DNA of 64,000 nucleotides from Microbacterium schleiferi (GTDB lineage: Bacteria > Actinomycetota > Actinomycetes > Actinomycetales > Microbacteriaceae), in assembly GCF_015565955.1 (NCBI RefSeq), contig NZ_CP064760.1:3224001-3288000 (forward strand). Reading direction: 5' to 3'. Both the position numbers and the translations under genes were made by a program. Shown one piece after another: positions 24,637 through 44,453 of this stretch. How positions within the stretch are numbered: the first letter of the stretch is position 1; each line of letters begins with the position of its first letter. The notes under the pieces are model-generated. The model had not been told where the DNA came from, did not search any database, and saw nothing but the letters and a program-made list of their open reading frames with translations.

Positions 24637-24858
24637 ATGCGCTGCTTGATGTGCGAAGAGCCCACCACGATGTACATCCCCTCGGACGACGTCGACGGCA
24701 TCGGGCTGCATAGCTGCGGTGTCTGCGGGTTCGAGATCGAAGGCCCCCGCGACGAACCCGCGCATGTCGCCGACCATCGGAAGCTCACTGCAACGACGAC
24801 CTCGACGACGTGTAGGTTCCCGTTGGAAATGGCCGAGGATGCCGGGAATCCCCGGTAG
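24637..24858 (+). pseudogene. Zinc-ribbon-like small protein, 3' end replaced by transposon end
   Basis: MRCLMCEEPTTMYIPSDD and a later CGVCG give two CxxC pairs (residues 3-6 and about 29-32), a small zinc-ribbon pattern. From codon 59 the reading frame enters the TGTAGG terminus at 24,811, which supplies the last codons and the TAG. The original C-terminus is probably lost. It mirrors the interrupted gene at 6,646. Confidence 0.5.
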
Positions 24859-24909: not shown

Positions 24910-24921
24910 GCCCCACGCCAG

Positions 24922-26178
24922 TCAGTCCTCGGCAACGCTGTCAGCGGCGTCGAGGCCGGGCAGTGTGAGAGCAGTCGCTTCGATCTCTTGCTGGGGTGCA
25001 GGCTCGGGCGGCGCCTGCGCCGGCTTACCGAACCCTGCGATTAGAAGCTCGCTGATGTCGTCCTTCAGAGAGCCAAAGCTTCGCAGGAACGCTGCAATGA
25101 GGCTCACGCTTGATCTTGCCGCCGGATCATTGAGTCGAAGCTGAGCCCCCGCAGCTTCTGAGATGTCTCGCCCACGAGCTAGCCGCTCGTGAACGACGAG
25201 ATCAAACTGTCGAGGCAAGTCTCGGAGCGCGGGCTGACGGCCTAGCCGGATTGCGAGTTCTGCAGCAGAGTCAGCCCACTCCGGCGGTGAGGGCTCAAAC
25301 GCGCCCATGGCCTCAGTCCGCACCTCGGGCGAGGCCTTCGCCGCCGCGAGCAGTCCACTGATGAACTTGTCGAAGTCGCGCGACAACTGGCGCATGCGCT
25401 GAGCGGGCACAACTCCGTCTGCGAGGCGTTCGCGAAGAAAACTTGTGAATGCACTCGGATCCATCGGGCGGACAAATCCCACGATCGTTACGAGGTTGAG
25501 TACCCAGATACTGAGGGTCTCTGAAATGAGCCACCGTACCGCGAGCTGTTCGTCATCCTTGACGCCGGGCGTCCAGCGCTGGCAAAGCGTCTCAAGTAGA
25601 CCCAGGCTCTGCTTCAGTGCAGCGAACGGATCTAGAAACCACACGGTGGAAGTGAGGAACTTGAACGCAGGTCCGAGCGTGGGATCGTCCTTGCTGACTA
25701 CTTTGACTGTGCGCCGCAGAAGCAGGGCGTTGGGTCCGTGGGCCCCAAGATCTGTGAGTTTCGAGAGATTAAGTGCGGCCTCTCGCGCCTGGAGGTCGTT
25801 GATCGATTCGACGCTGACGCGGGAATGGCGGCCCAGCTCCCGGGTTCTGGGCGTCACGCTCGAGGCAACAGTCAGTTCCGCTCGCTCTGCGCCTACCAAC
25901 TCTTGCAGTCCGCGTAGCCACACAATACGGTCGAGTGGTTTCGGCGCGCTCTTCCCCGTCCCGCTCTTGGACTCGCCAATGGTCCGGTGACTCTCGAGCC
26001 CGGGACCAAGCCCGATGGCGAGTAGATCCAGGTCGGTGACTTGGATGAGTTCCGCGCCGTAGTAGCTGATGAGGTCGATGCCTACCCGAGTGAAGTACCC
26101 CTCCCAGAACCACACTTGGCCTACGCGGCATTCGAGTCGATCACCGGGGGTTAGCGGGTCGGTCTTGACGGGTGGCAC
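24922..26178 (-). CDS. PD-(D/E)XK nuclease of a four-gene defence-like operon
   Basis: 418 residues. The N-terminal 130 residues carry a nuclease signature: Glu 16 in GDRLECRVGQVWF, the strand EGYFTRVGIDL, TDLDLLAIGLG (Asp 49/51) and the catalytic-like E-S-K in GESKSGTGK (69-71), then DRIVWLRGLQEL. The remaining 280 residues are helical and unrecognised. It overlaps the 3' end of the DNA upstream gene's frame by 38 bp (start at 26,178 versus stop at 26,141). It is the last gene of the operon and ends 13 bp from the transposon end. Confidence 0.65.
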   Translation of the reverse strand: MPPVKTDPLTPGDRLECRVGQVWFWEGYFTRVGIDLISYYGAELIQVTDLDLLAIGLGPGLESHRTIGESKSGTGKSAPKPLDRIVWLRGLQELVGAERAELTVASSVTPRTRELGRHSRVSVESINDLQAREAALNLSKLTDLGAHGPNALLLRRTVKVVSKDDPTLGPAFKFLTSTVWFLDPFAALKQSLGLLETLCQRWTPGVKDDEQLAVRWLISETLSIWVLNLVTIVGFVRPMDPSAFTSFLRERLADGVVPAQRMRQLSRDFDKFISGLLAAAKASPEVRTEAMGAFEPSPPEWADSAAELAIRLGRQPALRDLPRQFDLVVHERLARGRDISEAAGAQLRLNDPAARSSVSLIAAFLRSFGSLKDDISELLIAGFGKPAQAPPEPAPQQEIEATALTLPGLDAADSVAED

Positions 26179-27484
26179 GTTGCAGTTCCTTTCTCAGCTC
26201 GAGGATCGCTGATCTCGCGATCTCGTCAGCGGCTCCGAGGTCGCCCGCGCCCGCACGTGTTTGCTCTGGGTTGGTGAACTCGCCTGGAGCTCGGAGGAGG
26301 TTCACCGTCGGGTCCGTCGTTCCTGCGGACGTTGATGAGTTCTGAAGCCACGCGAGCCCGCCTTCGACGATCTCCTCCTTCACAAGTTCGAGGTATGCCC
26401 GGCCGTGGTCCGTTTCACGGACGCGAACGATGCCGTGCGCCTCAAGCAGGTGGTAGTCGGTGCTGATGTTGCTCGCAGGCCCAACGCTCCCGCGGTTTAG
26501 GAGCGCCCGCACGAGGACCACAGGATCGTGTATTCGACCGCCGCTACGTTCCGCTCGTTCATGCCCGAAGAGCATGTGGGCGACAAAAAGCTTGCGCTGA
26601 TTCAGCGCCTCGGTGGTTGTGAGCCGGTCGTCCTCCGACTCGAGAGTAGGTGAAAAGACATATGTCTGCGCTCCGGATCCTCCCGTCGACTTGACGGTGG
26701 CGGCCTGGACGAGTCCGACCTTCTGTGCTGCGCCGAACACGCCGGGGGTCGGTTGCGCGAGGAGTGGAAGTGCGAGGCCGGGGTGTTGCGCTGCCTGTTC
26801 ACATATGCCGAGAAGCGCGTCGCGCTCGCCCGGGGGAAGGCCACGGAGGAACGACGCGATCTCAATCTGTCCTGACTCCCACACGTAAGGGCTATAAATT
26901 ACGTCCTCGGCGAGATCGACGGAGTTGACGCGCTTTGTAAGGCCTGTCGCCAGTGCAAGGTTCAGACCGGTTTCGCTGACTTGGTCGTTGAATCCTCGTC
27001 GGTGGAGTTGGTCGAGATGTTGGGTGGTCGTCAACGGGGCGAACGATGCGACTTCGATCGAGTGCAGCGTTACGATCTCATCGATGGTCGGGTTGAGCTG
27101 CTGTAGAACGCGGTAGGACTGTTCGATGAGGTTCCCGGTTACGCCCAGAAACTCCTGCACCTCGATTACAACGCCTTGTGTGTCCAGCGCGAAGTCTGCA
27201 ACATTGGCAGCCTTCAGCGCCGGCAGCACGGTCGAGTGAAGTGATTGCCTTCCAATTCCTGCCTGGACGGCGAAAGACTCGAGGGCGGATGCACTCAAGG
27301 GGTCGGAGAATCCATGGATGCGGGCGACGAAGTCCATCGCTTCGCCTGCGTGAAGTAGTGACTCGAGTCTGGGTCTCAGAGCCGGGTCGATTGTGCGCGA
27401 GGCTTGATGAACCCGCGTCACAGCGCGCCCGAGTCGCCGGTCGGACCTGTTGACGTCCAGATCGGCAGTGGTGCTCTCCGCCAT
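26141..27484 (-). CDS. Defence-operon protein with winged-helix-like region
   Basis: 447 residues, no known catalytic motif. The N-terminal 200 residues are helical. The region around 320-400 (HDPVVLVRALLNRGSVGP followed by DYHLLEAHGIVRVRETDHGRAYLELV) resembles a winged helix. It has no signal peptide or membrane segment. It sits between the HEPN gene (69 bp upstream) and the nuclease gene (overlapping by 38 bp). The overlap suggests obligate co-production with the nuclease. Its role is unknown, perhaps sensing or regulating the nuclease. Confidence 0.5.
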   Translation of the reverse strand: MAESTTADLDVNRSDRRLGRAVTRVHQASRTIDPALRPRLESLLHAGEAMDFVARIHGFSDPLSASALESFAVQAGIGRQSLHSTVLPALKAANVADFALDTQGVVIEVQEFLGVTGNLIEQSYRVLQQLNPTIDEIVTLHSIEVASFAPLTTTQHLDQLHRRGFNDQVSETGLNLALATGLTKRVNSVDLAEDVIYSPYVWESGQIEIASFLRGLPPGERDALLGICEQAAQHPGLALPLLAQPTPGVFGAAQKVGLVQAATVKSTGGSGAQTYVFSPTLESEDDRLTTTEALNQRKLFVAHMLFGHERAERSGGRIHDPVVLVRALLNRGSVGPASNISTDYHLLEAHGIVRVRETDHGRAYLELVKEEIVEGGLAWLQNSSTSAGTTDPTVNLLRAPGEFTNPEQTRAGAGDLGAADEIARSAILELRKELQRATRQDRPANPR

Positions 27485-27553
27485 TCGAATCTCCTCACCC
27501 GCTACCGAGATGAGCCTACTGATCGGGCGTACGCTCCTCGCAGTGCGCTCGTC

Positions 27554-28657
27554 TCAATTTGTGGGGAATCGCATTTCGAGCACTCGCTGCCATTTGACGA
27601 CGTCGGCGGCGTCCTCGGGCCGAAGACTGCGCATGTGTGCCAGACGATTCCGAATCGGCATGATCTGCGCGCTGAACTGTCGCCAGTGAGCGGCGCTCAA
27701 CCCCAAGTCGCCGATCTGGGAACGGTCCTTTAGTTGGAGCAACTCCCCGAGTGAGAGCCATTCGAGAGGGTCGCGCAATTGCTTGACCGACGTGGCGCCC
27801 ATGTATGCCGATTCGCTCGCTCGCTCGAGCACTTTTTCCGGAAGGTCGCCGTTCAGGCACTGCGTGCGCCAGTTCTCCGCCCATGCGGCGATTGCGCGCC
27901 GACGCACTTCGCGTCGGATGATCCGCTCGATCTTCCAGAGTCCCGAACTCACCTCGGCAAGCTGCTGCTGAGGATCGAGGGCATCCGCGAGAACCTCGTC
28001 GAGCGCCTTCTTGAGCGGTCCGAGATGCTTCGGAAAATTCCATGTCCGAGTCGCACCGTCGGGCGCTGTAAGGCTGGAACCATCCAGCGCCTCAAGCTCC
28101 CTCGCGTTGAGCAGGCCCAGCGCGCTCTGGCCAATCAGCAGGCTCTCGTACACGACACGATCGAGAGACGCAGCCAGGTCCATACCGAGTTCTGTCAGCG
28201 CCCGGCACAGTACGTCGGCCGGGGAGGCGCCGTCTTCAACGCACGTTGGCCACTCGTGAGCGCCTGTGCTCTTGACGACCGGAGCATGCGCCAGGCTGGC
28301 GTCGTCAAGGAGCGAACTCCCGACCACTGGAGGGAAAGCAATCCGAGGCGCCCGGGAGAGGAGGATGACCCTGCCGCCGGCCTCGACGTCGCTGAAGACG
28401 CGCTCGCGTAGCGCACCCATCTGAGTGGCCTCACTCTGCATCGTGAGCGACTCCATCCCGTCGATCACGACTGTTCCGGTGGTAAGTGGGCCATCTGGCT
28501 GCAAGTAGTCCCGGACGCGCGTCACGTTCACCTGCGAAGCCCCCAGAGCGCGGCGGGCTGGCTCGTTGCTCGAGCCCAGCTGCAGGAACACGACGCGGAG
28601 TTGCTCCGCTTTTCGGTGAACGCCCAGTATCCAGTCGGAGTAGTCGGTCGCGCTCAT
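27554..28657 (-). CDS. HEPN/Swt1-like protein of the defence operon
   Basis: 367 residues. The C-terminal half contains a Swt1-like HEPN pattern: [34 protein letters not shown] and the RNxxxH motif RNRLAH at 336-341 in [18 protein letters not shown] proteins with this motif are often metal-independent RNases. The N-terminal half (1-170) has an alpha/beta look with [10 protein letters not shown] and [12 protein letters not shown], like a degenerate P-loop or receiver-type fold. The ATG overlaps the stop of the ATPase gene by 4 bp, so the two proteins are coupled. Confidence 0.65.
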
Positions 28658-30465
28658 ACGAGCTCCAGGATCACGCTGACTTCGAACTCGCCGTCCTGTT
28701 CGTGAATCAGACCCAGGTCCTTCAGTCGACGAACTGCGACGTGCTCGCTGGATGCGAGTTCCTTGAAGTCGGCTGCACTGTCCATCAGCACGTCCAGCAT
28801 GACGGCCTCGTTCGCGTAGTAGCGCTTGACGTGTTGGACCATCTCCTCAATGTTGCCTTGGACGCGACTCTTCCAATCATCAAGTTCTGTGAGCACGGAA
28901 GCGCGAGTCATCGTACGTTGGAAGACGTCGGTCGGAAGGTGCTGCACGACGGCTGAGCTCAGATTTCGATACAGATAGGCGTGACCACCGGACGCCTCGT
29001 GGAGTGCCTCGAGCGCACCAGGTTCGATCTGGATGCCCATCTTGCCGCCGACGGTGCTCGCGAGATCGTCCGCCTCTTCTCGCTCCAGCGGCTTCACGTA
29101 CACGGCCTTCGCCCAAGAGAAGAGGGGATTCGGTCGACCATACAGTCGTCCACCTTCAACGATGGCGCTTGTAAGGCCGGACAGCACGAAGGTGAAGTTC
29201 TCAGACTCCTGCACGATGCTCCTGAGGGCCGATAGCAGCTGCGCAATGCGTGGCATGTCGCCTTCAGCGATATCGATGCGATCCGCTGGGGTCAAGTACT
29301 CGATCTCGTCCAGGAGGAGCAGGATCCTATGCCCGTCTTTGTGGAGATGCTTGAGTATCGCCTGGAGAGCGTTCTTCAGGTCGAGGATGCTCGGGCGTTC
29401 CTGCAGCTGCGAAAGCTCTTGGGTGCGCAGCTTGTGAGCTTTGAGTTCAGCAATCAGTCGTCGACGCAGATCGCTGACGATGTCGTCGGTGGGGTCTTCC
29501 GGCGGAGAGGGGAAGGCCTCCAGGTCCATGAGGACGGTCACCACTTTGTCCTCTTGCAACTCCTCCTTAAGCTGCATGAGGATGCTCGTCTTGCCCGACT
29601 TCCGCAGTCCGAAGACGCCTGTGACTCGCTGGTTGAACACGTCGTCACGCATCGACTGCAGCAGTGTCCTGCGGCCGAAGAAGCTCGCGCCATACACGGG
29701 AGTCGTCATGTAGAAGAGGTCTCGGGCATAGATGTAGTCGCGAAGAAGGGTAATTAGCGAGAGTTCGTCTTCGTCGTCAATCAAGAGCGGGATCGCTAGT
29801 TTCGCGGGGCGCGACCAGTCGTTCAGTTTGATCTGTAGACGCCGATCGGGCGACCACATGAAGAAGATGTCCGGAGTGATGGAACGATCGGCGCCACCGA
29901 GCTCGCGGGCCGCAGCCTGGAAGGTCCGGCCCTGGAGATCCTCATGCGGACTGTAGAAGATCATCACCTCGCGGGTAAACCCAAACCCGGCCTCGATCGC
30001 TCCACTGAATCGCACATGGACGATCGCGCAGTCCCTGAAGCCATCCTGACGGCAGAACCCCGCGTAGACCACCTGGGAGCCAAGACTTCGCAGAGCGTCG
30101 ATGTGGTCACGCAGGACCGGGTACTTGTATCGAACGCGCTCGACGTTTGCCAGCAGGTCTGGGTGCTGGGGCGCCGCCACAGCGCCCGATCGCCAGCCGA
30201 ACTGTCGAGTGGATGGTGCGGTCGGATCGAATCCCGGCCGATCGACATGCGGGTCTACGTGCTCACGTCGCATCGGCGATGGCCGAGGCGAACCGGGTCG
30301 AGGGGGTCGGGCACCGAACGACGCCCTCACCTTGCGAGCAACTGGAGCTTCTATCGATGAAGACGGGCTCTTGACGAACTCACCAAGTTCTCGCAGACGG
30401 ACCAAGACGGCCTTTGCGTCGACTCCCAGTTCGGCGGCGAGCTCGTGCACTCGCATCTTCGCCAT
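28654..30465 (-). CDS. IF2N-domain AAA+ ATPase of the defence operon
   Basis: 603 residues from [14 protein letters not shown], chosen for the GGAGAACAG ribosome-binding site and because this is the exact start of an IF-2 N-terminal-like domain (residues 4-50). A Pro/Arg-rich linker follows. Residues 120-230 form a conserved-looking domain with [17 protein letters not shown]. The ATPase has Walker [10 protein letters not shown] (286-294) and Walker [12 protein letters not shown] (near 385). The C-terminal region predicts a winged helix as in STAND-type ATPases. It is the first gene of the operon and likely the sensor or switch. Confidence 0.7.
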
Positions 30466-32756: not shown

Positions 32757-32966
32757 TCAGCTCCGGTCACGGGTGTCGTCGGGTGCGCGTTGCGTGTCGG
32801 CGGGACCCGCAGGCTCCTCGCCCTGATCTCGTCCTCCAGCTCGGCTGCTGGATGAACCCGCATCCATGACTGCCTTCAGCGCCGTGGTGTACTTCTCTCC
32901 TGTCACCTTCACGCGTTCCCGCGCGTCGTGCCGCAGCCGACTGGAAGTTCGTTTCTTCTGCGTCAT
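32757..32966 (-). CDS. Small basic protein coupled to tniQ (69 aa)
   Basis: MTQKKRTSSRLRHDARERVKVTGE followed by a short helix and an acidic disordered tail. The start overlaps the tniQ stop by 4 bp. A similar motif, a basic helix with a Thr-Gly-Glu-x-Tyr turn, is seen in short actinobacterial plasmid proteins. The function is unknown. Confidence 0.5.
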   Translation of the reverse strand: MTQKKRTSSRLRHDARERVKVTGEKYTTALKAVMDAGSSSSRAGGRDQGEEPAGPADTQRAPDDTRDRS

Positions 32967-35206
32967 GCCGACGTCCTTCGCGTGTCTGGAATTCGAGTAT
33001 TCGTCGATGGCTCGACGGGAGTGCTGCGACGGAGTCCGTGAGCCTGTGATGGGCCCCGCGGGGCGGGCGGGTCAGATCGTTGCCTGCCTGCGTCCGAGGT
33101 AGACCCGTTGATGCGCGCCCCGCGTGGGCGGACCGGGATGCCGGCGCTATGCAAATGCCGGTTGATGGTCATCTCGCTACAGCCGGCGAGCTGCGCGATC
33201 TGTGCGATGGTCCAGTGCTTCGTTTCATAGTGATCGCGGAGCCAACGGGGGTCGAGGTCGAAGGTGCGGGGTCGTCCCCTTCGAGTCCGGGTGCCCGCGT
33301 CGGCGAGAATGCGACCCACTGTCTGCCGAGACACCCTCGTGTCTGCGGCGATCGTGTAGGTGGAAGCTCCCGCCGCGTACACCTGCGTCAGCCGGTCTGG
33401 TGGCATGGCTTCTGTCGCTGTCGCTCGTGCCGGCCGGATGGGCGGCCACGACGGCGCGATCTGGGGTCCGACTTCCGGGAGCTGAGGGGTGGGTTCGGGT
33501 GTCCAGGTGACGGGCTCCTGAATGCCGTTGGCGACGAGGAACTCTGCGGCGATCTGATCGAGCGCCGCCCGCACCGCCGGCGGGAGCTCCTCTACGAAGC
33601 GGGCTACGGCGGGCGGGCTCGCCCTGGTCGTGTGCCACGCCGTAGGCATCGCACGCAGCGGGTTCCCGGAGAGTTCTTGGTACAGGGCTGCGCGCGCCAA
33701 CTCCCAGCGTCGTCCGCTCCCTGGGGACACGCCCGCGTCCCGGCAGAGCTGCCCCCACTGTGATTCGGGCAGGAGATCGGTGTAGTCGAGGTGGCGGCGG
33801 CGGGCGTAGTCGATGGGCACGTCTTGCGTGTCCAATAGAGCTGCCAGGCGGAGGACCGCGTGCAGGGTCGTCACGTGGTGAGTGCTGCGGCCCAGCTCAC
33901 GCATCACGTGCGTCACCTGCCGTGACGGTGCGTGCGGATCGAGCAGCGCGAGCGCGGCGGAGTGTGTGAGCCTCGTGCCGGTAAACACGACCGCTGCTGC
34001 CAGCGCGGACGCGGCGATCTCGTTGTCGACCCGCAGTGGGGCGTACTGGGCGATCCAGTCCCCCCACAACTGTGCCGGCACTTTCCGTGCTCGCTCTTCC
34101 GGGCTGACGCCCGACGGCGGTGCGGACTGCAGAAACACGGTGGGGCGGCGGCGGCGACCCAGCGCGGCCGCGATCAGGGTCTGTAGTTGTGGTGTGTGCG
34201 CGGTGTACGACGTGCTGTGCGCCAGCCGCCCCTGCAGCAGGGAGATGATCGCGGCCGGATTGGTCAGTGCGCGGTGACCGAGGGTGGTGCCGACAGCGGC
34301 CCCGACGGCAGAGTCTGGTCGCGCCCGGATCGCCCTCGTCCAGTCCTCGCTCATCTCGAACAGCCCAATGAGCTCCCGGCCCAGCGGGCTCGCGTCGATG
34401 CTGTGACCGCCGACGATTGCGTCCCGCGCGGTGCGGGACAGTAGCCGAATGTCTTCCAACACAGGCACGGCCGGCTGCGGTGCATCAGCATAGATCCCGA
34501 ACTGCGCCTGACCGGTGGAGACGATGCGCATCATCGCCCGTTGCGCATCCAGCACCGCCTGCGGCACCGGCGTGCGGGTCCGGTCCTCGGTGAGGTCCGC
34601 GCGACACCGGTTGGCCTGCGGACCCCTCCCCGGACCCCGCACGGGATTGTGGCAACGCCCGGGAACGGGAACAAGTGCGAGCGGGTGAGCGCGGTGTCGG
34701 GCAGGAAGATCACAGGTCTGGCACCGATCCACGAGAAGGCGGCGGTGGCGGGCACAGGCGAACCCGAACGGGAACTGCCACGACATCCGCCACCGTCCAC
34801 CCGAATCGACCAGGCATTCCGGGCAGTATCGTCCCGCGGTCCCTGCAGCCGGGCATTGCGCGCTGATCCGACCCTGCCGGGTATAGCGGATCGCGTGACG
34901 GGCGAAGCGCATCCTCGTCATCTCGTGAAACTGATCGGCAGGGATGCCCGTGGAAGCCTCAAGCCGGGCAGCCTGCTCCTCGGTGAGGGTTGTGGCCCAC
35001 TTGTCCGCCATCCACGCGGTCGCCGATACAGCCAAACCCTTCTCCTGCTCGATGAGACCGAGCGCGCATGCCATCTCGTTCATCGTCGCCCCATAGGTGG
35101 CCGCCATCTTCTCCAGCCAGGAATCGAACGGCTCATCCGGCAGTGGCCGCACCCGAAACGGCAGCACCCGCACCTCGTCGGAACGCGTCGCGGCCTTGCC
35201 GGTCAT
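32963..35206 (-). CDS. tniQ: TniQ/TnsD-like target-selection protein
   Basis: 747 residues, long for TniQ. The N-terminal TniQ region (about 15-170) holds the family pattern VRPLPDEPFDSWLEKMA and a zinc-finger set: Cys 118, 128, 131, 151, His 154, Cys 162 and 165. The middle is helical. The C-terminus adds two helix-turn-helix segments, TYTIAADTRVSRQTVGRIL and WTIAQIAQLAGCSEMTINRHL. In Tn7-like elements TnsD/TniQ proteins bind the attachment site. Here the likely site is the dnaB 3' end. The start overlaps the tnsC stop by 4 bp. Confidence 0.88.
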   Translation of the reverse strand: MTGKAATRSDEVRVLPFRVRPLPDEPFDSWLEKMAATYGATMNEMACALGLIEQEKGLAVSATAWMADKWATTLTEEQAARLEASTGIPADQFHEMTRMRFARHAIRYTRQGRISAQCPAAGTAGRYCPECLVDSGGRWRMSWQFPFGFACARHRRLLVDRCQTCDLPARHRAHPLALVPVPGRCHNPVRGPGRGPQANRCRADLTEDRTRTPVPQAVLDAQRAMMRIVSTGQAQFGIYADAPQPAVPVLEDIRLLSRTARDAIVGGHSIDASPLGRELIGLFEMSEDWTRAIRARPDSAVGAAVGTTLGHRALTNPAAIISLLQGRLAHSTSYTAHTPQLQTLIAAALGRRRRPTVFLQSAPPSGVSPEERARKVPAQLWGDWIAQYAPLRVDNEIAASALAAAVVFTGTRLTHSAALALLDPHAPSRQVTHVMRELGRSTHHVTTLHAVLRLAALLDTQDVPIDYARRRHLDYTDLLPESQWGQLCRDAGVSPGSGRRWELARAALYQELSGNPLRAMPTAWHTTRASPPAVARFVEELPPAVRAALDQIAAEFLVANGIQEPVTWTPEPTPQLPEVGPQIAPSWPPIRPARATATEAMPPDRLTQVYAAGASTYTIAADTRVSRQTVGRILADAGTRTRRGRPRTFDLDPRWLRDHYETKHWTIAQIAQLAGCSEMTINRHLHSAGIPVRPRGARINGSTSDAGRQRSDPPAPRGPSQAHGLRRSTPVEPSTNTRIPDTRRTSA

Positions 35207-36363
35207 GCGGCTGCCACCTCGCCACCCTGGGTCTTTCGGCGGCGGCCCGCTCTCTGGCTTCGAAGCTGCCGTTCCAGCTTCGCCTCCAGCTCACGACGTT
35301 CCGTCTCGGCGCCCTCGTCGATGCGAATATCATCGAGCAGCTCCCGATCGATGCGTTCCCTGCCGGTGCGGATTGCGCGCGATGCGCCGCGGCGGATCAG
35401 GTCCATCAGCGACCCGATGTTCCCGGTCGTGCGGGCGAACAGGTACCGCGAGAGGTCGACGAGCATCCCGTCTCTCCCGTCGGTCAGCACGAGGGCCTGG
35501 TCGATGCCGAACAGCAGCCGGTCCCATTCATCGCGGCCGCGTTTGTGGGCGAGGGTGAAAGGTTCCAGGCTGAGGACTGTCCACCGTCGGAAGGTCTGCG
35601 CCATTGCTGCGCCTTCGCCGGTCTGGCCCTCCCCGACGAGTCCCCGCTTGCGGAGGGCGACACCGGCGAACAGGAACGTGGCGTTGTATTCATTCGAGAG
35701 CCACTTCAACTGGTTCGCGACCTCTACCCCGTCACGGGTATTCATCCGCAGGAAGTGGAGATCATCAACGATCACCAGGCGCGTGTCGTGGCGTTCGATG
35801 CACTCCGCGGCTGCCCGGGCAAGATCTCTACCCGCCATCGAGCGGTGCAGGATCCCGGCGGTGGCGGGGTGGGCGTAGAACCCGAGGATCATCATGTGCA
35901 GACCCTTGATCGTCGGCCGGCCCGTCAACGTCACATGACACACCGGCAGGTGCCGCACGTCCCGGTCCTGATCCAGCCACTCCCCGGCCTCCGCGATCCG
36001 CTGCTGGTGGAACACTCGACCGAAGTTGTTCACCACCGTGGACTTCCCGAGCGCCGGCGGCGCGTCGATCGCCGCCGCTGACTTCACCCGGTCGGCGTCT
36101 TGCAGGTTCGAGTCCAGGATGTCGCCGAGTTGCAACTCGATCTCCTGCACCTGTCGGGTGCGCAGCAGGATGTTCGCGTGCCACTGACGCCGCGCCAAGT
36201 CATACCCGACACGCTCCTGCGTGGATAGCGCCGCCAGCCGCTTCAGCGTGAGGGTGTCCGGACGGGTCCGGGCTGGGCGTTCTGCGAAGTCGTTCCACCC
36301 CTCGTAGGTGGACAGGCTCCGCTGCCGTGCTCCCGCCTGCGGCTGGGGCTGGGTGGTTGTCAT
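35203..36363 (-). CDS. tnsC: TnsC/TniB-like transposition ATPase
   Basis: 386 residues. An AAA+ ATPase of the TniB/TnsC branch: Walker A IDAPPALGKSTVV (about 99-111), Walker B LVIVDDLHFL (196-205), sensor region FLFAGVALRKRG and a C-terminal basic tail after residue 350. TnsC links the target-selection protein to the transposase. Overlaps by 4 bp on each side tie it to tnsB and tniQ. Confidence 0.93.
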   Translation of the reverse strand: MTTTQPQPQAGARQRSLSTYEGWNDFAERPARTRPDTLTLKRLAALSTQERVGYDLARRQWHANILLRTRQVQEIELQLGDILDSNLQDADRVKSAAAIDAPPALGKSTVVNNFGRVFHQQRIAEAGEWLDQDRDVRHLPVCHVTLTGRPTIKGLHMMILGFYAHPATAGILHRSMAGRDLARAAAECIERHDTRLVIVDDLHFLRMNTRDGVEVANQLKWLSNEYNATFLFAGVALRKRGLVGEGQTGEGAAMAQTFRRWTVLSLEPFTLAHKRGRDEWDRLLFGIDQALVLTDGRDGMLVDLSRYLFARTTGNIGSLMDLIRRGASRAIRTGRERIDRELLDDIRIDEGAETERRELEAKLERQLRSQRAGRRRKTQGGEVAAA

Positions 36364-38513
36364 CGGAGCATCTCCATCGGCTCGAAGCGGTAGTCGCCAC
36401 GGATGGTGGGCTCGTCGATGTCGTCCTCGTCGTCATCATCTCCGGTCTCCGGCACATCGACCCGTGTCCTCGGATCCCTCACCCCGCCGGTCAGCTCCGT
36501 CGCCAGGTCCGACCCGGCCGTGAGTTCTGCGTCCAGCATCCGTTGCACCGTCCGCAACGACCACACCCCTTCCGGATCGGGGTTCTTCTCATCCAGGCGG
36601 GCCGCCATCCGGGCGCTCATCCGCCGCTCCGACGGTGTCAACCCTCGGCCCGCGCCCCAGTCCTCGAGCAACTGCGCGGCAACATCATCGACCTGCGAGG
36701 GGCGGCCCTGCCGGATCGCAATCTTCTTCGCATACTCCAACGCGTCCAAACTGAACGGGGTGTCGAACGCGTCCTTGTGCTCCCACTCCAGGGTGTGCCA
36801 GGTGTGATCCTCCGGGTCGTGGAAGTAGATCTTCGTCAGGTCGTCCGGGTTCACCACGAACGGCCACTCCGTGCCCGTGTCCCGGTGGATCGACCGGGCC
36901 CGGTTGCGGTACTTCGCCACCGAATCCCCCGTGTAGCGAAGATTGTGAATCTCCACCCCATAGTGGTTGAACTGACGCTTCACCACCGGCAGCAGCTCCA
37001 ACAGCACATTCCGGTCCGTCGGCATCCGCAGCGAACCCGCGACAGCGAGCCCCTGGTCATACTTCTGCGCCGGACTCAACTTCACACCCGGGAGGCTGGG
37101 ATCGGCGAGCGACTCATGCGGGCGGAGGTGATAGACCGTCGCGATCCACTCGCGGATGATCTGCTCCAACTGCGGAACCGTATACACCGCCTCACCCTCA
37201 ACATCGTCCCCACGACCCGACACGTCCGCACCCTTGTAGCCGGGGAGCTCCTGCAGGAGAGAGTCGAGAGTGCGAAAGAAGCGCTCCACCGGGCTCTTGT
37301 CGGTGGGCTGGTAGATACGGGCTGGCTGGATTGATATGCCCAGTCGGGCGCACGCGGTGGTGACATGCTCGGAGAGGAAAGGGCGACCGTGGTCCACGAC
37401 GATCGTCTCGGGCAAGATGCCGGCGCGTGTGAAACGGGCGACATCGGTTCGGGTGGGGTCGACGAGCACCGTGTCAGGCACGCCGTGATACGGGACACGA
37501 GCGGCGGTATCCCAACTGCCCGGTAGGTCGAACGGCAGCATCGCTTCGACGAGAACACCGGACACGTCGATGGACTTGGTCGATCCTGGCGTCAAGCGCA
37601 GCCCGAGAATGCACCGTGAGTAGAGATCGATCGCGACCGTGAGGTCCGCGCAGACCCACTTGCCCGTCACCGGAGCGACGGCGAACACATTCAGTGGGGT
37701 GGTGTCAAGAAGTACGAACTCACCGGGACGTGACGCGGTCAACCGTCCGTAGGGAGCGGCGGGCCGGTTCGCGATCGATCTCTTTGCCTTCGTGGAACCC
37801 GCGAAAGTGCCTCGTCCGCGGGTGAGCTCGTCCAAGCCCCGGTATGCGCTGGCGGTGGACGGGAATGTGACGACGTCGGGGCCGTGAAGTCTCTCGATGC
37901 GTGCGCGGATCCGGGCGAGGATGATCTTCTTCTGCACCTTGGACTGATCGTCCTGCTCATCGAGTATCGTTCGCGCGGCGTCAACCCACCGCGGGTCGAA
38001 GTTTGTCAGTGCCGCACCCGTCCGTGACATCCGGGTATCGATGAGACCCGCTTCCCCGGTGTCTCGATACCGGGAGACCCATCGCTCCAGGGTCCGTAGG
38101 CCTATGTCGAGCTCTTTGGCCTTGGCCTTCTGTCGCTCTCGGAGCGGCCGTTGCGGGTGGTACTCCAGTCGTGGCTCGCCCTCTCGGGCGACCTCACGAC
38201 TGCCCGACCGGTATCCCGTGAGCACCTCACGGACGTGATCCGCCCGATGGTGAGCACCCGCCTGAGCGGACTGGGTTGCGTCCGACCAGACAAGCATCAA
38301 AGGTTGCGTCTGCTCGTCGTCGCCCACCCTGCCTGGCACGTGCACTCTGCCGCCTTCCGACTCCGGTTGCAGCACATCGATCATGCGGAGACGGCGAGTG
38401 CGCCCATCCGCGGTGCGGACGATGACGGCGCCATCACCGATCTCCGCGACCGTGCACATCTTTCCGTCGTAGGCAATCTGGGCCCCCGGGCTGACCTTCC
38501 AGGTGTTCTTCAT
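36360..38513 (-). CDS. tnsB: TnsB-like DDE transposase
   Basis: 717 residues from MKNTWKVSPG; an ATG at 38,573 that overlaps the tnsA stop is an alternative. The N-terminal half has two helix-turn-helix regions, e.g. ELDIGLRTLERWVSRYRDTG. The rve-type catalytic core carries Asp 270 (FVLLDTTPLN), Asp 374 (IVVDHGRPFL) and Glu 410 (KSPVERFF). A Mu-C-like C-terminus and an acidic DDDDEDD tail follow, probably for TnsC contact. It recognises the TGGC-type sites at the element ends. Confidence 0.95.
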   Translation of the reverse strand: MKNTWKVSPGAQIAYDGKMCTVAEIGDGAVIVRTADGRTRRLRMIDVLQPESEGGRVHVPGRVGDDEQTQPLMLVWSDATQSAQAGAHHRADHVREVLTGYRSGSREVAREGEPRLEYHPQRPLRERQKAKAKELDIGLRTLERWVSRYRDTGEAGLIDTRMSRTGAALTNFDPRWVDAARTILDEQDDQSKVQKKIILARIRARIERLHGPDVVTFPSTASAYRGLDELTRGRGTFAGSTKAKRSIANRPAAPYGRLTASRPGEFVLLDTTPLNVFAVAPVTGKWVCADLTVAIDLYSRCILGLRLTPGSTKSIDVSGVLVEAMLPFDLPGSWDTAARVPYHGVPDTVLVDPTRTDVARFTRAGILPETIVVDHGRPFLSEHVTTACARLGISIQPARIYQPTDKSPVERFFRTLDSLLQELPGYKGADVSGRGDDVEGEAVYTVPQLEQIIREWIATVYHLRPHESLADPSLPGVKLSPAQKYDQGLAVAGSLRMPTDRNVLLELLPVVKRQFNHYGVEIHNLRYTGDSVAKYRNRARSIHRDTGTEWPFVVNPDDLTKIYFHDPEDHTWHTLEWEHKDAFDTPFSLDALEYAKKIAIRQGRPSQVDDVAAQLLEDWGAGRGLTPSERRMSARMAARLDEKNPDPEGVWSLRTVQRMLDAELTAGSDLATELTGGVRDPRTRVDVPETGDDDDEDDIDEPTIRGDYRFEPMEMLR

Positions 38514-38569
38514 CGGACGCGTTTCCCTTCTCGTTGATCTGCGGGTGTGTGGATCGTCGCGCTCGACAC

Positions 38570-39289
38570 TCATGTCTCCAGGAGGCTGGTGATGTCGAGC
38601 ACGCGGGTGAGGTCCGTGTGCAGGCGCCGCGTCCACATCAGGTGCAACACAACGGACCGAGCCAATCGCGGATCGGCAGTGATCGCCGTGACAGCTCGCA
38701 CCGCTTCGCCGAATGTGACCGGAGTGGATAGCAACTCTGCTGCGCCATCGACTTCGGACTCGAGGAACTGGAAGCGCCGCCTATACCCGGCGAGGAACCG
38801 CACGTTCGCCAGCACGACAGGATCGGGCTCGGATTGCACCCGGTACTCCCAGCCGTGCCCCTCGATCACGCGCCGCGACCATCCCAGAGAATCGCGCACT
38901 TTCGGGCGTGACAACTTCTCAGCCGGCTTCACATCAACCACGCACCCCGACTCATCGGCGTGGACGAACAGGTAATCCGGGACGTGCTTGCGGCGCGTGC
39001 CGCGATCATCGCCGTCGAGCAGAAACGGCTGCGAGAGGATCCACACCACCCGCGGGTCGAAGTCGGCCAGCAGCAGGTTCACATACTCCAACCGCGACTC
39101 GTACCCCACCGGGGCCTCCATCGTCGCCGACCAGTACGAGCCGGAGAAGTGTCGCTGCTTGCGGTACCAACGAAACTCCCGCCACGGCACCGCGGTATCG
39201 AACTGACGAAGACGAACATCATTCAAGGCGATGACATCGACGTGATCGTCTGACCTGCGAATCTGAACCGTCGACGCCAGCCCGGTCAC
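38570..39289 (-). CDS. tnsA: TnsA-like endonuclease
   Basis: 239 residues. The nuclease domain has Glu 64 or 68 (GYESRLEYV), Asp 105 (HVPDYLFVH) and D-x-K at 119-121 (VVDVKPAEKL), matching TnsA in order and spacing. A helical C-terminus should contact TnsB/TnsC. The presence of TnsA predicts cut-and-paste transposition rather than cointegrates. It is the first gene of the tns operon. Confidence 0.92.
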   Translation of the reverse strand: MTGLASTVQIRRSDDHVDVIALNDVRLRQFDTAVPWREFRWYRKQRHFSGSYWSATMEAPVGYESRLEYVNLLLADFDPRVVWILSQPFLLDGDDRGTRRKHVPDYLFVHADESGCVVDVKPAEKLSRPKVRDSLGWSRRVIEGHGWEYRVQSEPDPVVLANVRFLAGYRRRFQFLESEVDGAAELLSTPVTFGEAVRAVTAITADPRLARSVVLHLMWTRRLHTDLTRVLDITSLLET

Positions 39290-39621: not shown

Positions 39622-39945
39622 ATGACGATAGTGGAGCCGATCGCACCAGCGGAGTCGCGGCTGTTCTTCGGCAACAGCTACATGAACGCTGTCGTCATAG
39701 AGATCGCCGCCCTCGAAGGCGACACCTTCTCTCCCAAGCAGATCGTCGAAGCGACTGGACTGTTGGGGAGCATCGTCCACCCACTGATCCACAAGCTCCG
39801 CGACGCACACTTCCTTGAGTTCGTCGGACGCGTGCCCGGAGAGCGGACCCTGCTCTACCGGATCCGTGACAACTACTGGTGGGAAGCCGCGCGACGCTAC
39901 GCCGCCGACCGGGAAGCCGCATCGGCCGAGCGCACGGCTTCCTAA
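39622..39945 (+). CDS. Winged-helix transcriptional regulator
   Basis: 107 residues from MTIVEPIAPAESRLFF. The middle, EIAALEGDTFSPKQIVEATG, LLGSIVHPLIHKLRDAHFLEF and TLLYRIRDNYWWEAARR, is a MarR/ArsR-like winged helix. It is divergent from tnsA and lies beside two palindromes, so it probably controls the transposition genes. The stop overlaps the convergent nuclease gene by 4 bp. Confidence 0.7.
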   Translation: MTIVEPIAPAESRLFFGNSYMNAVVIEIAALEGDTFSPKQIVEATGLLGSIVHPLIHKLRDAHFLEFVGRVPGERTLLYRIRDNYWWEAARRYAADREAASAERTAS

Positions 39946-40673
39946 CTGCCTGGGGACTGCAGCGGAACGTAATAGGCATCCAGATCGATTGCTAGAGCTG
40001 TTCCCAGCCGGGAAAGTGCGCGATACAGACGCGTCGCGAACCAGATCAGTTCCTGTCCTCCTGGGGAGTACGCGACCCCGTCAGTCTGATCGAAGGCGCC
40101 TCCTCGGACAGCAATGCCGAGATCGAGCCCCGTGGGCTGAGGCTCGGTGATCGAGCCCACAGCTGCAGCACCGCGGATATCTCCCCAATCAAGATCCGTG
40201 CTGAGAAAGACACCCAGGATCGGCTTGGCTTCCGGATCCTGAGCTGGATACGTACCGCCTGCATGCCGGATCTCCGCTGAGGTGCGGTGAAGTCGGCGAA
40301 CGCTGGCGACCTTGTCCCGGGCGTAGTCGAGGTTCTCCTTGTTCATTCTGGGCTTCACCTCACAAACGGCGTACAAGCTCTCGACCGGCACGAAGCGGAC
40401 GTCGCCCTGCTCGAAAAAAAGGGGCGAGTACTGTCGATCGAAGATCGCAATGTCGATCTGTCCGCTCTGTTGCCCGAGGGAGTCGATTGCGAAGATTGGC
40501 CCGACCCCGTATCGCTGGGGAAGAAACTCCCGGAGCACGCTGACCCATTGCTCCTCGGTGGCGTCACCCTTGGTGCCGGGATGATCTGTGAACTGCGGCA
40601 TGAGCCCCAGCCCTGTGAGCATGTGGTCCTGCTTCGCCGTATATGCCTTGGCAAGGTCGAACGGTTCGGACAT
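39942..40673 (-). CDS. DUF6602-like nuclease, candidate CBASS effector
   Basis: 243 residues from MSEPFDLAKAYTAKQDHM; an upstream ATG at 40,751 is less likely. The core GQIDIAIFDRQYSPLFF and VESLYAVCEVKPRMNKENL carries the Asp and E-x-K of a PD-(D/E)XK fold, as in DUF6602 proteins. It is the last gene after JAB, E1, E2 and CD-NTase genes, where CBASS operons carry their effector. The 165-bp gap to the JAB gene leaves room for an independent promoter. Effector function is an inference. Confidence 0.6.
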   Translation of the reverse strand: MSEPFDLAKAYTAKQDHMLTGLGLMPQFTDHPGTKGDATEEQWVSVLREFLPQRYGVGPIFAIDSLGQQSGQIDIAIFDRQYSPLFFEQGDVRFVPVESLYAVCEVKPRMNKENLDYARDKVASVRRLHRTSAEIRHAGGTYPAQDPEAKPILGVFLSTDLDWGDIRGAAAVGSITEPQPTGLDLGIAVRGGAFDQTDGVAYSPGGQELIWFATRLYRALSRLGTALAIDLDAYYVPLQSPGS

Positions 40674-40838
40674 GGGTGGTCTCGCTTTCAATGGACGCGG
40701 CTGGGAGATCGCCCGCGGGGATGGTGTCGAATGTTCGTGTTCGGACGCCACGCGCTTTGTGTAGGTCCACGACGTAGTTCTACCCGTCGCGCATAGCGGT
40801 CAGCAATGATGTGGGCAGCGGCCGGTACTGGTGAAACC

Positions 40839-41375
40839 TCAACTTCGATGTTGGACTTCAGTGGCTTCGCCGGGTGGCATCTGGTTCCGCGAGCCCTGAT
40901 CGGTTGCTGTGAGTGCGAGCGCGGCACGGTGGAGTTCGATGCCGTCTGGCGATTGCGCGAGCACCCATACGCTCAGGTGCGGGCGGGGATTCGGTGACCC
41001 AATAAGCGCGATGAATCGATGGAAGCGAAGTTCCAAGTCGACGAGGTGGGAGATGTAGGTGTTGAGATCCAGCGGGCTGGGTTCTGGCGGACCGTTGGGA
41101 TGGGTGTGCCATTCTCCGATCCATTGTGAGCGGTCGACCTTGTGGGCGCGGTCCGCGGCGAGTTGGGTGTATTCGAGGTCACGGAGGAAGTAGCCGGGTT
41201 GGTGGACGGCGTTCGGACCGGGTGCGGAGGCGGATGTAATGACGAGGGCGTTTTCGTGTCCGAAGAGTGCACCGCCGGTTTCGAGCGTGGGGTCGCTTCT
41301 CGCGATGATCGTTCTGATCGATGTGAGCGCACCCTGGGTGATACCGACGGTCCAGCTCACGGGTGGCGATGGCAT
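40839..41375 (-). CDS. JAB/JAMM isopeptidase-like protein (Cap3-like)
   Basis: 178 residues. The JAMM motif is complete: Glu in ETGGALFGHE (32-41), then His 90, His 92, Ser 100 and Asp 103 in GEWHTHPNGPPEPSPLD, i.e. HxHx7Sx2D. In type II CBASS this protein removes the CD-NTase conjugate. The start overlaps the E1 gene by 19 bp. Confidence 0.88.
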   Translation of the reverse strand: MPSPPVSWTVGITQGALTSIRTIIARSDPTLETGGALFGHENALVITSASAPGPNAVHQPGYFLRDLEYTQLAADRAHKVDRSQWIGEWHTHPNGPPEPSPLDLNTYISHLVDLELRFHRFIALIGSPNPRPHLSVWVLAQSPDGIELHRAALALTATDQGSRNQMPPGEATEVQHRS

Positions 41376-42646
41376 GCGGGGCAGTCCGGGTAAGGGGGCG
41401 TCGCGGAGGACCAGTGCGGGTGGAGTGCTCGTCGCGCATCGAAGGGGGCGGCGTAGCCGGGTGATGGGCGGAGGGCGATGACGAGGTTGTCATCGGTGAG
41501 GGTCTGATCGACTTCACCGGCGTTTTGCAAGAGAGTCGCGACGGCGACTTTCGCTGCGATGCTCCCAACGAGGTGAAGGTCTCCACCTATTGCGGTCATC
41601 GGGTTGTGTCGGGTGCCGTCCCCGTAGCCTCGGTCCAGGCTCGGTTCGGGATCGATCATTCCGTTGTCGCGCATGTATCGACGCTGACAGTCGAGGCATC
41701 CGACCTCGGGCAGTGCACGGATGCGCAGAATCTCTCCGTATCTGCCGTCGGCGAGGACGCAGGCGAACACAATCGGTTTGCCCGCACGGCGTGCAAGGTA
41801 GTTTGCGACGCGTCGGGGTTCGACTCCGTCGACGGTGCAGATGATGATGTCGGCGGCGTCAATCAGGGGTCGGGTGATGTTGGCGTTGGCGGTGAGGTCG
41901 ATGGGCCATGGGCTGATGTTGCTTTCCGGCCACTGCCTGTTCAGGGATGCCTTTAATCCATCCACTTTGGACATTCCAACGCTCGCGGCAGCGAGGACGT
42001 GCCGGGGAACGTTGTGGAAGAGGATCTTGTCAGGATCGACCAGGTCGATGTGGCCAACTCCGTAGCTTGCGAGTGCTTCGGCTGCGGCTCCTCCGATGCT
42101 GCCGGCGCCTAGCAGGAGCGCCCGCGAGGTCGAGAGGAGGCTGGTTGGCCAGAGGCTTCCAAGGGCGGTCACATGCTGGGTTCCGTCCTGGATGTCCAAA
42201 GAAATGGGGCGGACGGTGTCGTTCGAGATCGTCCACGCCGACCAGGCCGGAAGCCGTTCCCCATCGCGGATCTCCGGAGGGTCGGGACAGAAGGTCACGG
42301 CGATGTGCCATTGGCCGGGAAGCGGTGCGATCGCCTGCGGGACGAGGGTCTGGAAGGCGTCGAAGGGCATTGTCGCGTGTTGGTGGGTGAGAAGGTACGC
42401 GCAAAACGCGGCGTCCGCCGGCACTCGGTACCAGTGGCCGACGCGATTGAAGTCGGCGACCGTGAGGAAGTGGTCGGGATCCTCCGTGAGATGGACGAGG
42501 TCCGAGTCTTCGTTCGAGAGGGCGACGACTATGGCGGCCTTGTCCGGTGCGGACAGACGGCAGGTGAGATTGCCCCACGCGTACGACTTGTCGATGACCT
42601 CCATCGCTTCGGTGGGCAACAGCACCAGCCAGTTCTCGCCACTCAT
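41357..42646 (-). CDS. ThiF/E1-like activating enzyme
   Basis: 429 residues. The nucleotide loop GAGSIGG (180-186) is followed by IDLVDPDKILFHNVPRHV and VDGLKASL, typical of ThiF/E1 proteins. A C-terminal region has paired Cys (VGCLDCQRRY and PDCPACHRHP) that probably bind zinc. The first 165 residues lack E2 motifs, and E2 is encoded by the separate upstream gene. In CBASS the E1-E2 pair attaches the CD-NTase to cellular targets. Confidence 0.88.
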   Translation of the reverse strand: MSGENWLVLLPTEAMEVIDKSYAWGNLTCRLSAPDKAAIVVALSNEDSDLVHLTEDPDHFLTVADFNRVGHWYRVPADAAFCAYLLTHQHATMPFDAFQTLVPQAIAPLPGQWHIAVTFCPDPPEIRDGERLPAWSAWTISNDTVRPISLDIQDGTQHVTALGSLWPTSLLSTSRALLLGAGSIGGAAAEALASYGVGHIDLVDPDKILFHNVPRHVLAAASVGMSKVDGLKASLNRQWPESNISPWPIDLTANANITRPLIDAADIIICTVDGVEPRRVANYLARRAGKPIVFACVLADGRYGEILRIRALPEVGCLDCQRRYMRDNGMIDPEPSLDRGYGDGTRHNPMTAIGGDLHLVGSIAAKVAVATLLQNAGEVDQTLTDDNLVIALRPSPGYAAPFDARRALHPHWSSATPPYPDCPACHRHP

Positions 42647-42659
42647 GCGCTGTGCTCGG

Positions 42660-43166: not shown

Positions 43167-43168
43167 GG

Positions 43169-44257: not shown

Positions 44258-44331
44258 CTCAGGAACATGGCGGATCCGCCATTTGTCCGCCACTTCATCT
44301 GAGAATCCGCCATCTTCGCCGAGAACCTACA
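44258..44331. repeat. Tn7-like right end R1
   Basis: Ends GAGAACCTACA at 44,331. Read inward it gives TGTAGGTTCTCGGCGAAGAT, then TGGCGGATTCTC, AGTGGCGGAC and ATGGCGGAT sites, plus a GGCGGATCCGCC palindrome. The TGGCGGA form matches left end L1 at 6,789. It lies 122 bp inside R2. Confidence 0.7.
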
Positions 44332-44382
44332 CCGGGTCGACGGAGATGAGCCGCCCGATCACGTCGATGCCAAATCCATCCA
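44332..44382 (-). pseudogene. Gene remnant between the two right ends
   Basis: On the minus strand the frame reads VDGFGIDVIGRLISVDPV and stops at a TAG made by the R1 terminus. The segment looks like the C-terminal end of a coding region, but it is only 17-18 codons long. It may be what is left of the sequence that R1 inserted into. Confidence 0.3.
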
Positions 44383-44453
44383 CCGCACTTGGCCGAATGG
44401 CCAAGTGCGGGCCAAGTTGACACAGAAACGGCCATCTTCACGTGGAACCTACA
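44383..44453. repeat. Tn7-like right end R2 abutting dnaB
   Basis: Ends GGAACCTACA at 44,453. Read inward it gives TGTAGGTTCCACGTGAAGAT, then TGGCCGTTTC, ACTTGGCCCG and a perfect 12-bp inverted repeat CCGCACTTGGCC/GGCCAAGTGCGG (44,383-44,410). The TGGCC sites match left end L2. One base (44,454) separates it from the dnaB stop codon. Confidence 0.75.

What the first reader, a model, noticed from the sequence alone, without database searches (positions are those of the whole stretch)
24922..30465. Uncharacterised four-gene defence-like operon
Overlapping genes encode an IF2N-domain ATPase, a Swt1/HEPN protein with RNRLAH, a helical/winged-helix protein and a PD-(D/E)XK nuclease. The mix of a STAND-like switch with one RNase-like and one DNase-like module, carried beside a transposon end opposite a CBASS operon, suggests an anti-phage system. 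I do not recognise this exact combination as a named system.
Basis: partly seen in the sequence, partly recalled or inferred. Interest (0 to 1): 0.85.

Follow-up and report, generated by a model that had tools for sequence, protein, structure and literature searches.

The report
Two joined defence-like gene pairs
The four genes look like two separate gene pairs parked side by side in a jumping element: a rare switch-plus-RNA-cutter pair, and a widespread, apparently unnamed DNA-cutter pair that probably helps bacteria resist foreign DNA.

Summary
The four genes are real but are not one conserved four-gene system. C (26141-27484) and D (24922-26178) are an old, co-diverging pair: D directly follows C in 50 of 52 genome-contig loci encoding C (many bacterial phyla, two archaeal MAGs; not all independent), in 8 of 8 plasmid loci and 3 of 3 viral-collection contigs. 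D has an invariant PD-(D/E)XK site and a nuclease core nearest to AF1548 and Can2/Card1. C is predicted to be four tandem winged helices. I found no family for either above cut-off in Pfam, PADLOC or NCBIfam, and no sequence match in the PDB.

A (28654-30465: IF2_N, STAND-like ATPase) and B (27554-28657: probable Swt1-type HEPN, weak evidence) form a second, very rare pair. Of the 52 loci only a 99.2%-identical Microbacterium testaceum contig has B (and the end of A).

A-D and a NucC-CBASS operon lie inside a Tn7-like element ending at dnaB. A related element in Actinoplanes carries C-D without A-B.

Best reading: a DNA-targeting nuclease pair plus an ATPase-HEPN pair, both transposon cargo. 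Anti-phage function is inferred; a neighbour control showed defence genes near and far, no near enrichment.

The parts
28654..30465 (-). Gene A: IF2_N domain (res 1-52), linker, middle domain (~100-255), STAND-like/ATPase_2-type AAA ATPase (~260-500), C-terminal region
27554..28657 (-). Gene B: N-terminal region of unknown kind, C-terminal probable Swt1/Abi2-type HEPN (RNRLAH); overlaps A by 4 nt
   Evidence: (PDC-M34B 8.7e-4)
26141..27484 (-). Gene C: four predicted tandem winged-helix domains; 69 nt after B; motif GPxxNIxTDYxxLE in the last wH
24922..26178 (-). Gene D: PD-(D/E)XK nuclease (E16, D49, D51, E69, K71) with a long helical C-terminal region; overlaps C by 38 nt
32963..35206 (-). 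TniQ of the Tn7-like element, with C-terminal HTH
   Evidence: 6.7e-17
35203..36363 (-). TnsC/TniB ATPase
   Evidence: 1.4e-8
36360..38636 (-). TnsB-type transposase (rve and Mu C-terminal profiles, both below cut-off)
38570..39289 (-). TnsA-like endonuclease (TnsA_like_Actin)
   Evidence: 1.7e-69
39942..44125 (-). CBASS operon with E1/E2/JAB genes: NucC effector 39942-40751, JAB 40839-41375, E1 41357-42646, E2 42660-43166, CD-NTase 43169-44125
24811..24834 (+). Left-type transposon end repeat TGTAGGTTCCCGTTGGAAATGGCC
44323..44453 (-). Two right-type end repeats (TGTAGGTTC at 44445-44453 and 44323-44331) immediately beside the dnaB stop

Best explanation
The locus is two independent two-gene modules carried together as cargo of a Tn7-like element that also carries CBASS.

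Module 1 (C-D): C, a tandem winged-helix protein, binds D, a Mg-dependent PD-(D/E)XK nuclease. C probably recognises a feature of invading DNA, or a DNA structure, and licenses D to nick or cut it: a methylase-free restriction-like pair. Shown: near-constant linkage, co-divergence, intact active site, predicted folds. Inferred: complex formation, DNA as substrate, self/non-self discrimination by C, anti-phage or anti-plasmid role.

Module 2 (A-B): A, a STAND-like ATPase, is the switch. Its IF2_N arm resembles the N-terminus of the host's own IF2 and is the likely input or docking arm. B carries the HEPN RNase effector and is released or activated when A fires, cutting RNA and stopping growth. 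Shown: A's domains and Walker motifs, B's R-x4-H, the 4-nt overlap. Inferred: everything else, including B's fold and RNase activity.
For: C-D as a unit: a D profile hits directly after C in 50 of 52 genome-contig loci; the other two (L070, L071) stop at the end of the held DNA. All 50 are on the same strand, 49 of 50 with D's earliest possible start no more than 10 nt past C's stop. In the 8 fetched plasmid loci the D next to C was also found independently by tblastn; 3 of 3 viral-collection contigs have it. C and D distances correlate at r = 0.968 over 39 pairs of sequences (741 comparisons; best of 1000 permutations 0.243). D's E16, D49, D51, K71 are invariant in 43 of 43; residue 69 is D (33) or E (10). 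D's model has the alpha-beta-beta-beta-alpha-beta core, nearest to AF1548, VC1899, Cdn1, Can2 and Card1. C's model reads as four wH units.

A-B as a separate pair: 4-nt overlap, then a 69-nt gap to C. No A or B hit in 51 of 52 C loci nor in 8 plasmid loci. A related Tn7-like element in Actinoplanes (L024) has TnsA-B-C-TniQ then C-D, with no A/B hit.

Mobile setting. Defence setting.
Against: No function was tested. The neighbour control shows no enrichment: 249 PADLOC models matched among 129 near ORFs and 178 among 103 ORFs several kb away. C is rare: 3 of 248 genomes of the order, own included. Some of the 52 loci are not independent: L020 is the query, L028 and L037 were already in the query alignment as L004 and L010, and L025/L026 and L058/L059 are near-duplicates. 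C has no significant structural match (best E 0.064) and D none with E at or below 0.001 (best 1.2e-3; TM normalised by query 0.16-0.23 for the nuclease hits). B's HEPN identity rests on a 17-bit hit and a motif. A direct profile comparison of B with the HEPN-like tails of A's relatives failed (probability 0.1-0.2%), and those tails read R-x3-H, not R-x4-H. The one other copy of the four-gene order (L020) is 99.2% identical and cut inside A, so it says nothing about long-term linkage.
Confidence: 0.55

Rival explanations
1. A-B-C-D is one integrated four-gene system: A senses, B and D are alternative effectors, and C links the ATPase to the nuclease.
For: Same strand, compact order, only 69 nt between the pairs; the RNA fold of that gap is not unusual (z -1.13; no terminator scan was run); B-C-D and the end of A kept in a near-identical strain.
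Against: C-D without any A/B hit in 51 of 52 genome-contig loci (43 with at least 3.5 kb upstream) and 8 of 8 plasmid loci; L024 carries C-D alone in a related transposon.
Confidence: 0.12
2. C-D is not an anti-phage system but an element-maintenance, plasmid-competition or toxin-antitoxin-like pair (D toxic DNase, C its DNA-binding antidote and repressor).
For: Present on some plasmids (14 and 18 records matched by C and D, 8 by a distant C), in Tn7-like elements and in viral-collection contigs; gene order wH protein then nuclease with tight coupling; integrases (2) and resolvases (2) among 129 near neighbours.
Against: C is large, with four wH units, and co-diverges with D over deep distances (r 0.88 among 496 pairs with C distance above 0.6); known defence genes occur around the pairs, though without near enrichment.
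Confidence: 0.25
3. A-B is a split form of a fused ATPase-HEPN defence protein (as in Klebsiella, Deinococcus and Qingshengfaniella plasmids) that landed next to C-D by chance.
For: A aligns over its middle domain and ATPase with the Klebsiella protein (23.6% over residues 130-508) and with the other two, which carry a C-terminal HEPN-like tail (my reading); B and P0007 both weakly match PDC-M34B.
Against: hhalign of B with the tails found nothing; the tails have R-x3-H; P0008 and P0009 gave no PDC-M34B match at E 0.1.
Confidence: 0.4
4. A-B is a decayed or non-defensive accessory (for example a regulator of the transposon).
For: Extremely rare: B has no credible relative in 396 phylum genomes or in the plasmid collection.
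Against: Both frames are open with intact Walker and R-x4-H motifs; A is not found with the related transposon in L024.
Confidence: 0.12

Closest known systems
Can2/Card1/Cdn1 CRISPR ancillary nucleases (nuclease domain)
   Same: D's N-terminal core matches these and VC1899 (Foldseek probability about 1.0; E 9.6e-3 to 7.3e-2; low TM by length) with the PD-(D/E)XK site.
   Different: The CARF domain that (as recalled) defines them is absent from D's model, which has helices after the core, and D has a dedicated tandem-wH partner.
AF1548 / Mrr-like restriction nucleases and R.BspD6I small subunit
   Same: PD-(D/E)XK core; 1y88 (AF1548, called Mrr-like from recall) is the best fold match (E 1.2e-3); 1 of 43 D proteins weakly hits Mrr_cat (1.5e-3).
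   Different: 42 of 43 D members give no Mrr_cat hit at 0.01; DNA recognition would lie in a separate protein, C; no methyltransferase recurs beside the pair.
Swt1/Abi2 HEPN fused to AAA+ (Ava_2192/DUF499 type; Anantharaman 2013, PMC3710099, passages seen)
   Same: ATPase plus Swt1-type HEPN logic, proposed RNase effector of defence loci.
   Different: Here the two are separate genes, the ATPase is STAND/ATPase_2-like with no DUF499 hit in the Pfam scan, and it bears an IF2_N domain.
Tn7-like transposon defence cargo (Benler 2021, PMC8649781, passages seen)
   Same: Tn7-like elements, including a large actinobacterial clade, carry CBASS and restriction genes (both listed for Actinobacteria; HEPN listed for other phyla only).
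   Different: C-D has no family name in the libraries searched; the paper's main text has no occurrence of dnaB.

Membership tests
PD-(D/E)XK nuclease superfamily (D) | alpha-beta-beta-beta-alpha-beta core with E...D...(D/E)xK | tested here: met
   (43 of 43)
Can2/Card1 family (D) | CARF sensor domain fused to the nuclease (recalled) | tested here: not met
   model of D: nuclease core then helices only
STAND/ATPase_2-like ATPase (A) | P-loop ATPase core with Walker A and B, STAND/ATPase_2 profile | tested here: met
   Walker motifs; AAA_22 above cut-off, but ATPase_2 29.8 bits against 33.2 and nSTAND1 26.4 against 27.1 just below cut-off; profile A3 hits 2fna and 2qen
Swt1/Abi2 HEPN RNase (B) | Rx4-6H in a HEPN domain | tested here: inconclusive
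   RNRLAH present; only PDC-M34B 8.7e-4; no Pfam hit and no significant PDB hit; fold not modelled
PADLOC candidate PDC-M34 | PDC-M34B protein together with its partner genes | tested here: not met
   B hits PDC-M34B weakly; A, C and D hit no PDC-M34 model at E 1
Any named defence system in PADLOC-DB 2.0 / NCBIfam 20 (C-D) | match of C or D to a system model | tested here: not met
   C and D of the window: none; 3 further C-D pairs none in PADLOC; of 44 C and 43 D members only 4 isolated non-defence NCBIfam families, 1-2 members each
Restriction-modification (C-D) | cognate methyltransferase in the operon | tested here: not met
   no recurrent third gene: among 129 near ORFs (110-1199 aa) of 48 loci no PADLOC or Pfam family is in more than 3
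Anti-phage defence system | protects a host against phage | not testable with these tools
   needs a plaque assay
Tn7-like transposon | TnsA, TnsB, TnsC, TniQ and paired terminal repeats | tested here: met
Tn7-like transposon | target-site duplication at both ends | tested here: not met
   the 8-nt flanks of the end repeats do not match; nesting or later rearrangement possible

The most novel reading that the evidence does not exclude
C-D is an undescribed two-protein DNA-targeting immune system spread over bacteria and archaea, in which a four-winged-helix reader replaces the methylase, helicase or second-messenger sensor of known systems. A-B is a translation-watching alarm whose IF2_N arm mimics the host IF2 N-terminus, so that phage interference with initiation frees a HEPN RNase. 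More widely, actinobacterial mobile elements reuse the IF2_N domain as an interchangeable docking module.
Probability: 0.25. Interest if true: 0.8.

Novelty: new variant of a known kind. Interest (0 to 1): 0.52.

Why it matters
A deeply conserved two-gene nuclease pair that appears in many bacterial phyla, two archaeal MAGs, plasmids, viral-collection contigs and Tn7-like elements, yet matched no family above cut-off in Pfam, PADLOC or NCBIfam, is a concrete and easily cloned candidate immune system. If it works, it would show nuclease targeting by a tandem winged-helix reader without a methylase. The IF2_N-bearing ATPase suggests a testable way for a defence switch to watch translation.

Tried and rejected
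Rejected: one conserved four-gene system. Rejected: a match of C or D to a known family above cut-off (the stray weak hits were single members to DUF6272, DUF7339, Mrr_cat and DUF2779, and four unrelated NCBIfam names) or to solved structures by sequence (best E 0.01, a calcium uniporter piece).

Led nowhere: relatives of B in viral contigs, plasmids and 396 phylum genomes; the one other hit, G354, is a short stop-bearing stretch. BLAST and hhalign of B with HEPN-like tails. Weak ATPase-type hits of A in 10 other genomes of 396. A first end-repeat pattern found only the left repeat; the others came from inverted repeats and the exact 9-mer. Empty site: dnaB homology of four relatives ends at window 44444-44468; two of these alignments run 9 nt into the end repeat because those genomes have an end-like sequence there (exact TGTAGGTTC in L104, a similar one in L103), while L102 has none. 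The left flank matched mobile-looking DNA of another genome (G736) and no target duplication was found. Paper searches for Swt1/HEPN/anti-phage, IF2N, PDC-M34, a PDDEXK two-gene winged-helix system, and IF2N with RNase E showed no title or abstract start describing C-D or A (listings only). Passages were seen of PMC3710099 and PMC8649781; PMC10293859 got only a term search with no hit. SspB, recalled as a defence nickase, was rank 4 in C's fold search at E 0.14, TM 0.19: not significant.

Caveats on counts: the genome-contig scan used one peptide motif of C (58 stretches, 52 loci), so C proteins without it were missed. Nine of 52 loci have under 3.5 kb upstream of C. Neighbour lists dropped L020, L026, L037 and L059 as self or duplicates and ORFs under 110 or from 1200 aa; the far list used 103 of 104 rows (a TnsA row of L024 left out). 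The plasmid D proteins were in the D profile used, so one search is the independent test for them.
Full report
Observation. The four ORFs exist on the - strand: A 28654-30465 (603 aa), B 27554-28657 (367 aa), C 26141-27484 (447 aa) and D 24922-26178 (418 aa). A and B overlap by 4 nt and C and D by 38 nt, while B and C are separated by 69 nt, so the spacing already suggests two coupled pairs. A matches IF2_N (3.4e-13) and AAA_22 (5.5e-10), with nSTAND1 and ATPase_2 just under their cut-offs. B, C and D match nothing above cut-off in Pfam and nothing at E 1 in NCBIfam; PHROGs gives B one hit at 0.034; in PADLOC only B hits, weakly (PDC-M34B, 8.7e-4).

C-D is the conserved unit. C relatives at about 50% identity sit on Rhodococcus, Streptomyces and Pseudarthrobacter plasmids, and more distant ones on other plasmids (14 of 72,556 records, 8 fetched). 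C is rare in any one group (3 of 248 genomes of the order, own included). A scan of genome contigs with the C alignment gave 52 loci, from Actinomycetota, Bacillota, Pseudomonadota, Bacteroidota, Cyanobacteria, Planctomycetota and others to two archaeal MAGs. They are not all independent: L020 is the query, L028 and L037 were already in the query alignment, and L025/L026 and L058/L059 are near-duplicates. A D profile hits directly after C in 50 of 52; the two exceptions end with the held DNA. All 50 are on the same strand, and in 49 of 50 D's earliest possible start is at most 10 nt past C's stop. In the 8 plasmid loci tblastn with D finds the neighbour of C, and the 3 viral-collection contigs have the pair too. 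Pairwise C and D distances correlate at 0.968 over 39 pairs, against a best of 0.243 in 1000 permutations; this shows inheritance as a unit, not a mechanism.

A and B are not part of that unit. Searching the ORFs of these loci with A and B (phmmer, E 1e-3) found B only in L020, a Microbacterium testaceum TPD7010 contig that aligns with window 20467-28811 at 99.2% and is cut inside A. The other 51 loci gave no A or B hit; 43 of them hold at least 3.5 kb upstream of C. The 8 plasmid loci gave none. B had no credible relative in 396 genomes of the phylum or in the plasmid collection. A's nearest long matches are AAA-like proteins of Klebsiella, Qingshengfaniella and Deinococcus plasmids (19-24% identity by tblastn; 20-21% in the alignment) that end in what I read as a HEPN-like tail. 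This suggests that A-B is a split ATPase-HEPN, but the link is weak: only the Klebsiella protein and B share weak PDC-M34B hits, hhalign failed, and the tails read R-x3-H.

D. In 43 D proteins G12, E16, G27, D49, D51, K71, R84, W87 and G90 are invariant and residue 69 is always D or E. The AlphaFold2 model (pLDDT 88.1) has the PD-(D/E)XK alpha-beta-beta-beta-alpha-beta core followed by helices. The nearest solved folds are AF1548 (1.2e-3), VC1899 (9.6e-3), Cdn1, Can2 and Card1 (2.5e-2 to 7.3e-2; probabilities about 1.0, low TM because only the core aligns); none reaches E 0.001. No CARF-like part is seen. D is therefore predicted to be an active, Mg-dependent nuclease.

C. The model (pLDDT 85.7) reads, by my inspection of its helices and strands, as four consecutive winged helices, preceded by a helical pair and followed by a C-terminal helix. 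The most conserved stretch, G-P-x-x-N/A-I-x-x-D-Y-x-x-L-E, lies in the last wH. Fold search gave no significant match (best E 0.064); partial hits include TFIIIC subunits and MarR regulators. A DNA-reading role is inferred.

Setting. TnsA, TnsB, TnsC and TniQ lie at 32963-39289. The 9-mer TGTAGGTTC, followed by ...ATGGC, occurs four times in the window: 6789 and 24811 (+), 44323 and 44445 (-), the last touching the dnaB stop. A-D and the NucC-CBASS operon are inside under any pairing. No target duplication was found, so the outer boundary is unsettled. In four relatives dnaB homology stops at window 44444-44468; right after the dnaB stop one of them (L104) has an exact TGTAGGTTC and another (L103) a similar repeat, so the dnaB 3' end is probably a recurrent target of such elements, while L102 shows no repeat. 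In Actinoplanes couchii (L024) the homologous TnsA-B-C-TniQ set is followed directly by C-D with no A/B hit; C-D is thus Tn7-like cargo at least twice. Tn7-like elements of Actinobacteria carrying CBASS and other defence genes are known (PMC8649781, passages).

Defence setting, with its control. Among 129 ORFs next to C-D (48 loci), 249 PADLOC models matched at 1e-10 (Gabija-like helicases, RmrA, capP and others, 3 members at most each); among 103 ORFs farther away, 178 matched (type I specificity subunits in 4). The models are redundant and the tool gives no count of proteins hit, so this is crude, but it shows no near-gene enrichment; it is compatible with defence or mobile islands and proves nothing. 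Pfam hits nearby include UvrD, IrrE peptidases, integrases and resolvases.

IF2_N. A's residues 2-55 are 65% identical to a host gene that I read as infB from its sequence. Plasmid-collection records of other actinobacteria also match: 11 records, one annotated as infB, most without an annotation at that place. I fetched 6; of the 5 not annotated as infB, 4 show an IF2_N-led frame of 341-750 codons and one (L111) showed none above 150. L109, L110 and L112 look related to each other; L108 is different; none resembles A beyond IF2_N by eye. The domain thus seems to be reused by mobile elements. A docking or sensing role is speculation.

Mechanism, with likelihoods. C-D as a DNA-targeting pair licensed by C: about 0.5-0.55; as a toxin-antitoxin or maintenance pair: about 0.25. 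A-B as an ATPase-switched HEPN RNase: about 0.45. One integrated four-gene system: about 0.12.

Verdict. The valuable part is the widespread C-D pair; A-B is a rare neighbour with an odd IF2_N sensor candidate. I saw no description of either in the search listings, which cover only the open-access library.

Noticed in passing
6789-6818 (+): A further Tn7-like end-type repeat (TGTAGGTTCCCGCTCGAGATGGCGG), suggesting an outer or nested element from about 6.8 to 44.45 kb.
   Followed up: partly
39942-44125: CBASS operon with CD-NTase, E2, E1, JAB and a NucC effector in the same Tn7-like element.
   Followed up: partly
L104, L103 (unnamed relatives G643, G642): End-like repeats directly after the dnaB stop in two other genomes of the genus (exact TGTAGGTTC in L104, a similar repeat in L103), so dnaB 3' is probably a recurrent Tn7-like insertion site.
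   Followed up: partly
L105 (G638 contig 11): A related genome holds a second, partial dnaB 3' copy about 11 kb from the full dnaB.
   Followed up: no
31507-32331 (+): Calcineurin-like phosphoesterase gene between A and TniQ, on the opposite strand.
   Followed up: no
24067-24763: Left flank of the element is 90% identical to a contig of another genome of the genus (G736/L101) whose ORFs look plasmid- or mobile-element-like to me.
   Followed up: partly
L108-L110, L112: IF2_N domains at the start of plasmid ORFs not otherwise like A, one just after a type I restriction gene (L110) and one after a MobF relaxase gene (L109); L109, L110 and L112 look like one family.
   Followed up: partly
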